Positions 8,323 to 9,214 of a stretch of DNA of 35,203 nt are shown in pieces. The notes beneath the pieces are model-generated. The model was not told where the DNA came from. It saw only the letters and a list, made by a program, of their open reading frames with translations, and did not search any database. The position numbers and the translations under genes were made by a program. The DNA is from an uncultured Erysipelotrichaceae bacterium (GTDB taxonomy: Bacteria > Bacillota_I > Bacilli_A > RFN20 > CAG-826), in the NCBI GenBank assembly GCA_902802905.1, contig CADCNT010000003.1, forward strand, positions 88,354 to 123,556, given 5' to 3'. Numbering within the stretch: position 1 is the first letter of the stretch; the number at the start of each line of letters is the position of its first letter.

Positions 8323-8351
8323 GATAGTTACCTCTCAAATTGTCATGCGTT

Positions 8352-8381
8352 ATTATATCAATAACGATTTATTTATTCCAA
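8352..8381 (-). promoter_or_regulatory. greA promoter
   Basis: On the minus strand TTGGAA (8376-8381), an 18-bp spacer and TATAAT (8352-8357). The leader would be about 20 nt and carries GAGAGG. Confidence 0.6.
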
Positions 8382-8383
8382 CA

Positions 8384-9163
8384 TTATTCTTGCGAAATGT
8401 GATCAAACAAATAATAAACTAGTCCAACAGCCCCTTTTTCAATAGACGTAGGCGTAGTTATGTCAAGCGTGTATGTGTATTGTTTCATGTTCACAGGAAC
8501 CTCATTCAACAAAGTTGAGTTCCCATCTTTTAGATAAACCACAAACACATCTTTGTTGTTTGCAAAAGCATATTGCAGCTCGGTTTTATATGAATATGAA
8601 TTGAATGAATTTTCACTTAGGAAGAACAACATAGCGCTGGAGCGTTTTATTTTATGTACCAAGTCTACACCCCAATCCATGCTTGGAGCTAAAGATTCAT
8701 CAGATGATGTTACTATTTCGTATTTTCTTAAAACTTTTCTAATCTCGTCAACAACAACACTATCTTGACGTGAGTATGAAACGTAGATATGTTGCAAGTA
8801 GATAAATTTCATTAGTTCTTTTCTAAGTCTACGTTTAGTGCTTTCTTTCAAATAACCTCTTTTATCAAAATCAGAATCTAAATCAATGGTTGTTGTGTTT
8901 CTTTTCCCGGTTTTGTAAACATAATCTAATTCTTTATTAACCCAAACTGATTCTCTAGCATTTTTAGAATCACAATAAATGAACCAAATACGGGCATCAA
9001 TTTCTTCTTCAATTAAAGAAGTAATTTCGTCATCATCATCTTTACTCTTTAAAAAGAATAAAAGCGGTTCTGAGGAATTCCTTTCCAAGAAGTTGCGGAT
9101 TTTTCTCACTTTTTCTAAATCTCTATGAGAGTGAGATATAAAAATGAAAACTTTGTCTTCCAT
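8384..9163 (-). CDS. tandem TIR-domain protein
   Basis: A 259-aa protein made almost entirely of two TIR domains. TIR1 (about 4-95) has VFIFISHSHRD, a central IWFIYCDSKNARESVW and VNKELDYVY with Glu78 at the place of the catalytic glutamate of TIR NADases. TIR2 (about 125-215) has HIYVSYSRQD, SSAMLFFLSENSFNSYSY and KTELQYAF with Glu195. A basic helical linker (residues 105-122) joins them. There is no signal peptide or membrane segment, so it is cytoplasmic. TIR proteins in bacteria serve in anti-phage signalling (Thoeris, CBASS and others) or NAD+ hydrolysis; which applies here cannot be told, and no known defence partner is adjacent. ATG 9163 is chosen because it starts the first beta strand and lies 7 nt after a -10 box; the frame extends 31 codons further upstream through the promoter. 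Confidence 0.8.
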   Translation of the reverse strand: MEDKVFIFISHSHRDLEKVRKIRNFLERNSSEPLLFFLKSKDDDDEITSLIEEEIDARIWFIYCDSKNARESVWVNKELDYVYKTGKRNTTTIDLDSDFDKRGYLKESTKRRLRKELMKFIYLQHIYVSYSRQDSVVVDEIRKVLRKYEIVTSSDESLAPSMDWGVDLVHKIKRSSAMLFFLSENSFNSYSYKTELQYAFANNKDVFVVYLKDGNSTLLNEVPVNMKQYTYTLDITTPTSIEKGAVGLVYYLFDHISQE

Positions 9164-9170
9164 GTCTATA

Positions 9171-9199
9171 AGTTTAAAAGAGTTAGATATCTTATTCAA
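9171..9199 (-). promoter_or_regulatory. promoter of the tandem-TIR gene, leaderless
   Basis: On the minus strand TTGAAT (9194-9199), exactly 17 bp, then TAAACT (9171-9176), with 7 nt to the ATG at 9163. The predicted transcript would begin at or next to the A of the start codon. No Shine-Dalgarno sequence is present. Confidence 0.6.
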
Positions 9200-9214
9200 A
9201 TAGATTAATCTATT
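9199..9214. promoter_or_regulatory. perfect 16-bp palindrome, candidate operator
   Basis: AATAGATTAATCTATT equals its own reverse complement. It lies between the divergent TIR and chromate-transporter starts, touches the -35 of the TIR promoter and covers the expected -35 position of the transporter promoter. A dimeric helix-turn-helix regulator bound here could control both sides; the regulator is not in the window. Confidence 0.55.

What the first reader, a model, noticed from the sequence alone, without database searches (positions are those of the whole stretch)
8384..9163. Stand-alone tandem-TIR protein: candidate new TIR immune or NAD+ signalling protein
The sequence shows two TIR domains in only 259 aa, each with a box-1-type motif (FISHSHRD; YVSYSRQD) and a glutamate in the catalytic-type position (VNKELDYV; KTELQYAF). 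Established knowledge: bacterial TIRs make or cleave NAD+-derived signals in defence systems, usually with a separate sensor or effector domain. Here there is none; one TIR may act as the enzyme and the other as a scaffold, or the pair may self-assemble as an intramolecular dimer. It sits alone between housekeeping genes and opposite a transporter pair. A defence role is inference.
Basis: partly seen in the sequence, partly recalled or inferred. Interest (0 to 1): 0.7.

Follow-up and report, generated by a model that had tools for sequence, protein, structure and literature searches.

The report
Stand-alone tandem-TIR protein, single-gene insertion
This bacterial gene makes a small protein built only of two different TIR domains (the enzyme module of many immune systems), dropped on its own between two housekeeping genes; both halves keep the catalytic glutamate, so it is probably a one-gene NAD+-using anti-phage protein, but its activity is untested.

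Summary
Window 8384-9163 (-) encodes 259 aa with two TIR domains, shown by Pfam and by two confident AlphaFold2 models. It is not an isolated oddity. Twenty other full-length tandem-TIR relatives occur patchily in Bacillota (7 of 279 genomes of the order, counting this one), with one in a planctomycete bin. Some add a zinc ribbon or a Cys-rich tail. No partner gene is conserved. The two halves are different TIR lineages, not a recent duplication. TIR1 is strongly constrained (52% mean identity) and TIR2 diverges freely (23%), yet the catalytic-type glutamate is kept in both (E78 and E195, 20/20 each; E195 is the only TIR2 column at 20/20). This speaks against 'one enzyme, one dead scaffold'. 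In 14 of 17 congeners greA and the transporter gene are directly divergent with a 107-134 bp spacer; here the TIR gene alone has been inserted. No SIR2/STALD effector was found in the genome. Most likely it is a self-contained, horizontally acquired NAD+-processing TIR defence protein: TIR1 the constant catalytic core, TIR2 a fast-evolving second TIR that completes the assembly and may carry the trigger. Enzymatic and defence roles are inferred, not shown.

The parts
8384..9163 (-). Tandem-TIR gene, 259 aa
   Evidence: ORF/translation; Pfam TIR_2 x2; AF2 model; family of 20 other full-length relatives
8876..9154 (-). TIR1 (residues 4-96): conserved half; short TIR with four predicted strands, alphaD/betaE reduced to a loop
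   Evidence: 25 columns at 19-20/20; AF2 of TIR1 alone; PDB fold matches SPARTA TIR, RPP1-type TIR, ThsB, AbTir, SARM1
8795..8845 (-). Helix joining TIR1 to TIR2 (residues 107-123)
   Evidence: DSSP of AF2 model
8387..8794 (-). TIR2 (residues 124-259): full TIR fold, fast-diverging
   Evidence: Pfam TIR_2 126-213; Z 15.5 to SPARTA TIR-APAZ and 14.2 to SARM1 TIR; mean pairwise identity 23%
8930..8932 (-). Codon of E78, catalytic-type glutamate of TIR1
   Evidence: 20/20 aligned full-length members; sits in SxxVxxE like SARM1 WVHKE (knowledge)
8579..8581 (-). Codon of E195, catalytic-type glutamate of TIR2
   Evidence: 20/20; only TIR2 column at 20/20
8384..9196 (.). Approximate extent of the single-gene insertion between greA and the chromate-transporter gene
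   Evidence: Absent from 14 congeners whose intergenic DNA aligns to both flanks
8352..8381 (-). greA promoter-like site (TTGGAA-18-TATAAT); TIR stop codon lies 2 bp upstream of it, no terminator seen
   Evidence: conserved in congeners

Best explanation
A self-contained, horizontally acquired TIR immune enzyme. Two unlike TIR domains are joined by one helix. TIR1 is the constant, constrained catalytic core. TIR2 is a fast-evolving second TIR that still keeps its catalytic glutamate. At rest the protein is off. A phage-made trigger, most likely felt through the diversified TIR2 surface (or by the zinc ribbon / Cys-rich tail in some relatives), drives TIR1-TIR2 units to stack head to tail. TIR NADase active sites form between neighbouring TIR domains, so stacking turns on NAD+ cleavage or a cyclic-ADPR-type product and stops the infected cell. 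Shown here: the two folds (predicted), both conserved glutamates, asymmetric conservation, separate TIR lineages, single-gene insertion, patchy distribution, no conserved partner. Inferred: NAD+ chemistry, phage trigger, stacking, sensor role of TIR2.
For: Two TIR folds closest to NADase TIRs (SPARTA, SARM1, AbTir, ThsB). E78 and E195 in 20/20 members; TIR1 more conserved than TIR2 in 190/190 pairs. TIR1s form one clade (100/100) apart from all TIR2s. Patchy: 7/279 genomes of the order, 2/392 sampled from the phylum. Clean insertion: 14 congeners have greA directly divergent from the transporter gene, none of 17 has the TIR gene there; near-identical flank with and without a relative's gene in G023/G204. 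No conserved neighbour in 19 loci; other TIR genes (TIR-methyltransferase, TIR-NB-ARC-TPR, TIR-LRR) lie within 8 kb in several relatives. Literature: TIR NADases act through composite sites at head-to-tail TIR interfaces (PMC12847820).
Against: No activity or phage data. TIR1 is short, and TIR2 lacks a strict box 1 in some relatives (e.g. ISAP in L016/L029), so one or both sites could be weak. Most relatives sit among housekeeping genes (SecA, Obg, KsgA, AdhE types) rather than in defence islands. No phage, plasmid or viral-contig copies were found. Close congeners live without it.
Confidence: 0.5

Rival explanations
1. Thoeris-like sensor (ThsB-type): the TIR protein makes a cyclic-ADPR-type signal for an effector encoded elsewhere in the genome.
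For: TIR1 scores above the cut-off of Pfam ThsB_TIR (37.9 vs 21.2 bits), PADLOC ThsB models hit at 1e-8 to 1e-10, and Foldseek ranks ThsB structures first for TIR1.
Against: No SIR2_2 or STALD (uncontrolled) gene in the genome; no effector recognised beside any of 19 relatives; NCBIfam type III ThcB4 is not met (44 vs 220 bits at best in relatives, none in P0001).
Confidence: 0.17
2. Non-catalytic adaptor or scaffold: the TIR pair nucleates assembly of the genome's other TIR proteins (TIR-LRR, TIR-GNAT) and the glutamates are structural.
For: Animal TIRs often act as scaffolds (knowledge); the genome has two other TIR genes.
Against: The only invariant TIR2 residue is the catalytic-type Glu, against 23% background identity.
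Confidence: 0.13
3. Non-defence enzyme: a small NAD+ or nucleotide N-glycosidase (the related nucleoside deoxyribosyltransferase-like fold) with a regulatory or metabolic role.
For: DNPH1 and deoxyribosyltransferase folds also match; neighbours are housekeeping genes.
Against: Box-1 and SxxVxxE motifs are TIR-type; distribution is patchy with insertion polymorphism between near relatives, unlike core metabolism; TIR2 diverges fast.
Confidence: 0.13
4. Secreted or injected TIR effector acting on an animal host, like known TIR virulence factors of pathogens.
For: Many carriers are gut bacteria (record titles).
Against: No signal sequence visible in the translation; relatives include a planctomycete bin; no secretion genes conserved nearby.
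Confidence: 0.04

Closest known systems
ThsB (TIR protein of Thoeris)
   Same: TIR fold, catalytic-type glutamate, Pfam ThsB_TIR match in TIR1, often small cytoplasmic protein
   Different: Two TIR domains in one chain; no ThsA-type effector next to it or (SIR2_2, STALD) in the genome
SPARTA TIR-APAZ, AbTir and SARM1 TIR NADases
   Same: Among the closest solved folds; Glu in the same helix
   Different: Those carry APAZ, coiled-coil or ARM-SAM domains; here the only partner of the TIR is another TIR
SpbK (stand-alone anti-phage TIR protein of Bacillus subtilis)
   Same: Single-gene TIR protein of Bacillota, needs no effector gene
   Different: SpbK has an N-terminal sensor domain for the phage portal; here there is a second TIR
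Tandem-TIR proteins elsewhere (Dictyostelium TirE, mollusc Tolls; two-TIR proteins in L048, L064, L066)
   Same: Two TIR domains in one chain
   Different: Fused to other domains or made of other TIR lineages; those in L048, L064 and L066 lie outside the conserved TIR1 clade of this family; TirE and the Tolls were not placed in the tree

Membership tests
TIR domain superfamily (Pfam TIR_2) | Profile match above curated cut-off and TIR fold in each half | tested here: met
   86.2 bits vs 28, two stretches; folds
Catalytic (NADase-type) TIR domains | Conserved glutamate on the alphaC helix | tested here: met
   E78 and E195 20/20
Catalytic (NADase-type) TIR domains | NAD+ cleavage or cyclisation in vitro | not testable with these tools
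   Needs a protein assay
Thoeris (ThsB) | ThsB-type TIR domain | tested here: met
   ThsB_TIR 37.9 vs 21.2 bits
Thoeris (ThsB) | Adjacent ThsA effector (SIR2-SLOG, TM-macro or caspase-like) | tested here: not met
   Neighbours are greA and chromate transporter; none recognised in 19 relatives; no SIR2_2 in genome
Thoeris type III ThcB4 (NCBIfam NF058526) | Score above equivalog cut-off of 220 bits | tested here: not met
   No match in own genome; best relative 44 bits, over TIR2 only
CBASS/Pycsar TIR effectors | Fused ligand sensor (SAVED, STING, cNMP) and adjacent cyclase | tested here: not met
   No other domain; no cyclase neighbour
Stand-alone anti-phage TIR proteins (SpbK-like) | Protection from phage without other genes | not testable with these tools
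   Needs phage challenge

The most novel reading that the evidence does not exclude
A one-protein, two-active-site TIR immune system: TIR1 and TIR2 run different NAD+ reactions or form an obligate hetero-TIR active site within one chain, with a constant TIR1 and a diversifying TIR2 that acts as the phage-facing sensor. A TIR would thus serve as sensor and enzyme with no separate sensor domain.
Probability: 0.17. Interest if true: 0.75.

Novelty: new variant of a known kind. Interest (0 to 1): 0.5.

Why it matters
TIR NADases are shared by bacterial, plant and animal immunity, and their active sites form between neighbouring TIR domains. A natural covalent pair of unlike TIRs with both glutamates kept is a simple system for asking how two TIRs make one active site, and whether a TIR surface itself can sense infection. 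The empty-site congeners give a clean genetic comparison.

Tried and rejected
Internal duplication as the origin: rejected, TIR1s form one clade (100/100) without any TIR2; TIR2 placement itself is poorly resolved. Type III Thoeris membership (ThcB4 hit): rejected, 44 of 220 bits and only over TIR2. C1 family (membrane + Rossmann-like protein) as a partner: near three relatives only and absent from this genome. Mobile element as carrier: no transposase beside the gene and no usable inverted repeats at the insertion; an IS21-type pair lies beside one relative (L029). Phage or plasmid carriage: no hits; absence limited to those collections. The structure library of viral proteins gave only generic TIR, deoxyribosyltransferase and other Rossmann-like folds. 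GC of the gene (0.324) is within the range of its neighbours, so no compositional sign of transfer. The STALD search had no positive control. Literature searches found no description of this family in the held library, which omits most subscription papers.

Full report
Observation. The gene is real and placed as described: window 8384-9163, minus strand, 259 aa. Pfam TIR_2 matches twice, and ThsB_TIR matches the first half above its cut-off. AlphaFold2 with 22 other rows gives pLDDT 90.7 and pTM 0.80 for the chain, and 92.7 / 0.86 for TIR1 alone. Against solved structures TIR2 is closest to SPARTA TIR-APAZ (Z 15.5), with RPP1-type (14.5) and SARM1 (14.2) TIRs nearby. TIR1 is closest to RPP1-type, SPARTA, SARM1 and ThsB TIRs (Z 12-13; Foldseek top ThsB, AbTir, EcThsB). 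TIR1 is short: the model shows four strands, with alphaD/betaE replaced by a loop before the helix that leads into TIR2. A pTM of 0.80 suggests a defined orientation of the two halves, but coordinates and aligned errors were not available.

Family. tblastn and profile searches found 20 other full-length relatives with the same two-TIR layout in Bacilli, Erysipelotrichales, Clostridia and one planctomycete bin. In the order of the host, 7 of 279 genomes carry one, counting this genome (rows with nearly full-length matches). In an even sample of the phylum, 2 of 392 have a TIR1 match at E 1e-8, both from the family of the host. Subtypes: plain (this one, L044, L017); zinc ribbon + TIR + TIR (L024, L019, L020, L022, L027, L030-L032); TIR + TIR + Cys-rich tail (L021, L033-L035). 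The assemblies are mostly metagenome bins, so single cases may be misplaced.

Asymmetry. Over 20 aligned full-length members mean pairwise identity is 52% in TIR1 and 23% in TIR2; TIR1 is the more conserved in all 190 pairs. TIR1 has 25 columns at 19-20/20. In TIR2 only E195 reaches 20/20 and only L145 reaches 19. So TIR2 is free to change almost everywhere except the catalytic-type glutamate. In a tree of 126 TIR domains, TIR1s form one clade (100/100) that includes a few single-TIR proteins (L028, L037, L026); TIR2s lie outside it, many on long, poorly placed branches. The pair is therefore a fusion of two TIR lineages, not a recent duplication.

Genome context. The gene sits between greA and a divergent chromate-transporter pair. 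In 14 of 17 congeners with greA these two are directly divergent with a 107-134 bp spacer; two others have greA next to ruvX; none has the TIR gene there. The spacer aligns to both flanks of the insert, with junctions near 8384 and 9190-9196. The TIR stop codon lies 2 bp from the -35 of a conserved greA promoter and no terminator was seen there, so read-through into greA is likely (inference). The congener G015 carries a different subtype elsewhere in its genome. A second polymorphism: G023 has the gene downstream of an M18 aminopeptidase gene, G204 with a 96% identical aminopeptidase does not. GC is unremarkable.

Partners. Clustering of neighbours in 21 loci found no gene shared widely. Pfam and PADLOC scans of 98 neighbours from 19 loci show mainly housekeeping genes and scattered single defence-type hits. 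Other TIR genes lie within 8 kb of several relatives: TIR-methyltransferase and TIR-NB-ARC-TPR beside L017, TIR-methyltransferase beside L044, TIR-LRR beside L022, a lone TIR1 beside L026. The host genome has two further TIR genes, TIR-LRR-like and TIR-GNAT-like (the fusion partners were judged from the translations), and no SIR2_2 match (control positive in two genomes).

Mechanism. Work on SpbK and other TIR NADases shows that active sites form at head-to-tail interfaces between TIR domains (PMC12847820), and many ThsB proteins have extensions thought to hold them apart until infection (PMC11204291). On that basis I propose that one chain supplies two neighbouring TIRs, that stacking is triggered by a phage product, and that TIR2, being the variable part, faces the trigger. 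Because TIR1 lacks betaE in the model, its BB loop could dock on TIR2 but its own E face is reduced; I predict E78 as the main active site. All of this paragraph beyond the two citations is inference.

Verdict. Ordinary in kind (TIR protein), unusual in layout and evolution. Not filed under Thoeris, because the defining adjacent effector was looked for and not found. Confidence in an NAD+-processing defence role is about one half.

Noticed in passing
window 9199-9214: Perfect 16-bp palindrome AATAGATTAATCTATT upstream of the chromate-transporter gene, kept in close congeners; candidate operator.
   Followed up: partly
window 8348-8366: CGTTATTATATCAATAACG, an inverted repeat over the greA -10 region, conserved across congeners.
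   Followed up: partly
L048:4794-8106: Four consecutive two-TIR proteins (261-293 aa) in one apparent operon in a Clostridiales bin; outside the TIR1 clade.
   Followed up: no
L037:4920-13160: Five TIR proteins in a row in a Bacteroidaceae bin, two with the TIR1-type domain, others with beta-propeller or hexapeptide acyltransferase parts.
   Followed up: partly
L044:12165-14546, L017:11443-12801, L022:5014-7269: Family without informative Pfam match (by eye: membrane helices, a Rossmann-like GxGxxx stretch and an EHxRW-like motif in the two longer copies) near three relatives; 17 of 279 genomes of the order carry it.
   Followed up: partly
L026:7992-8333: A 113-aa lone TIR1-type ORF directly upstream of a tandem-TIR gene, giving three TIRs in a row.
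   Followed up: no
L001, L003: Two other TIR genes of the host genome: TIR plus BspA-like repeats, and TIR plus an acetyltransferase-like part (judged from the translation).
   Followed up: no
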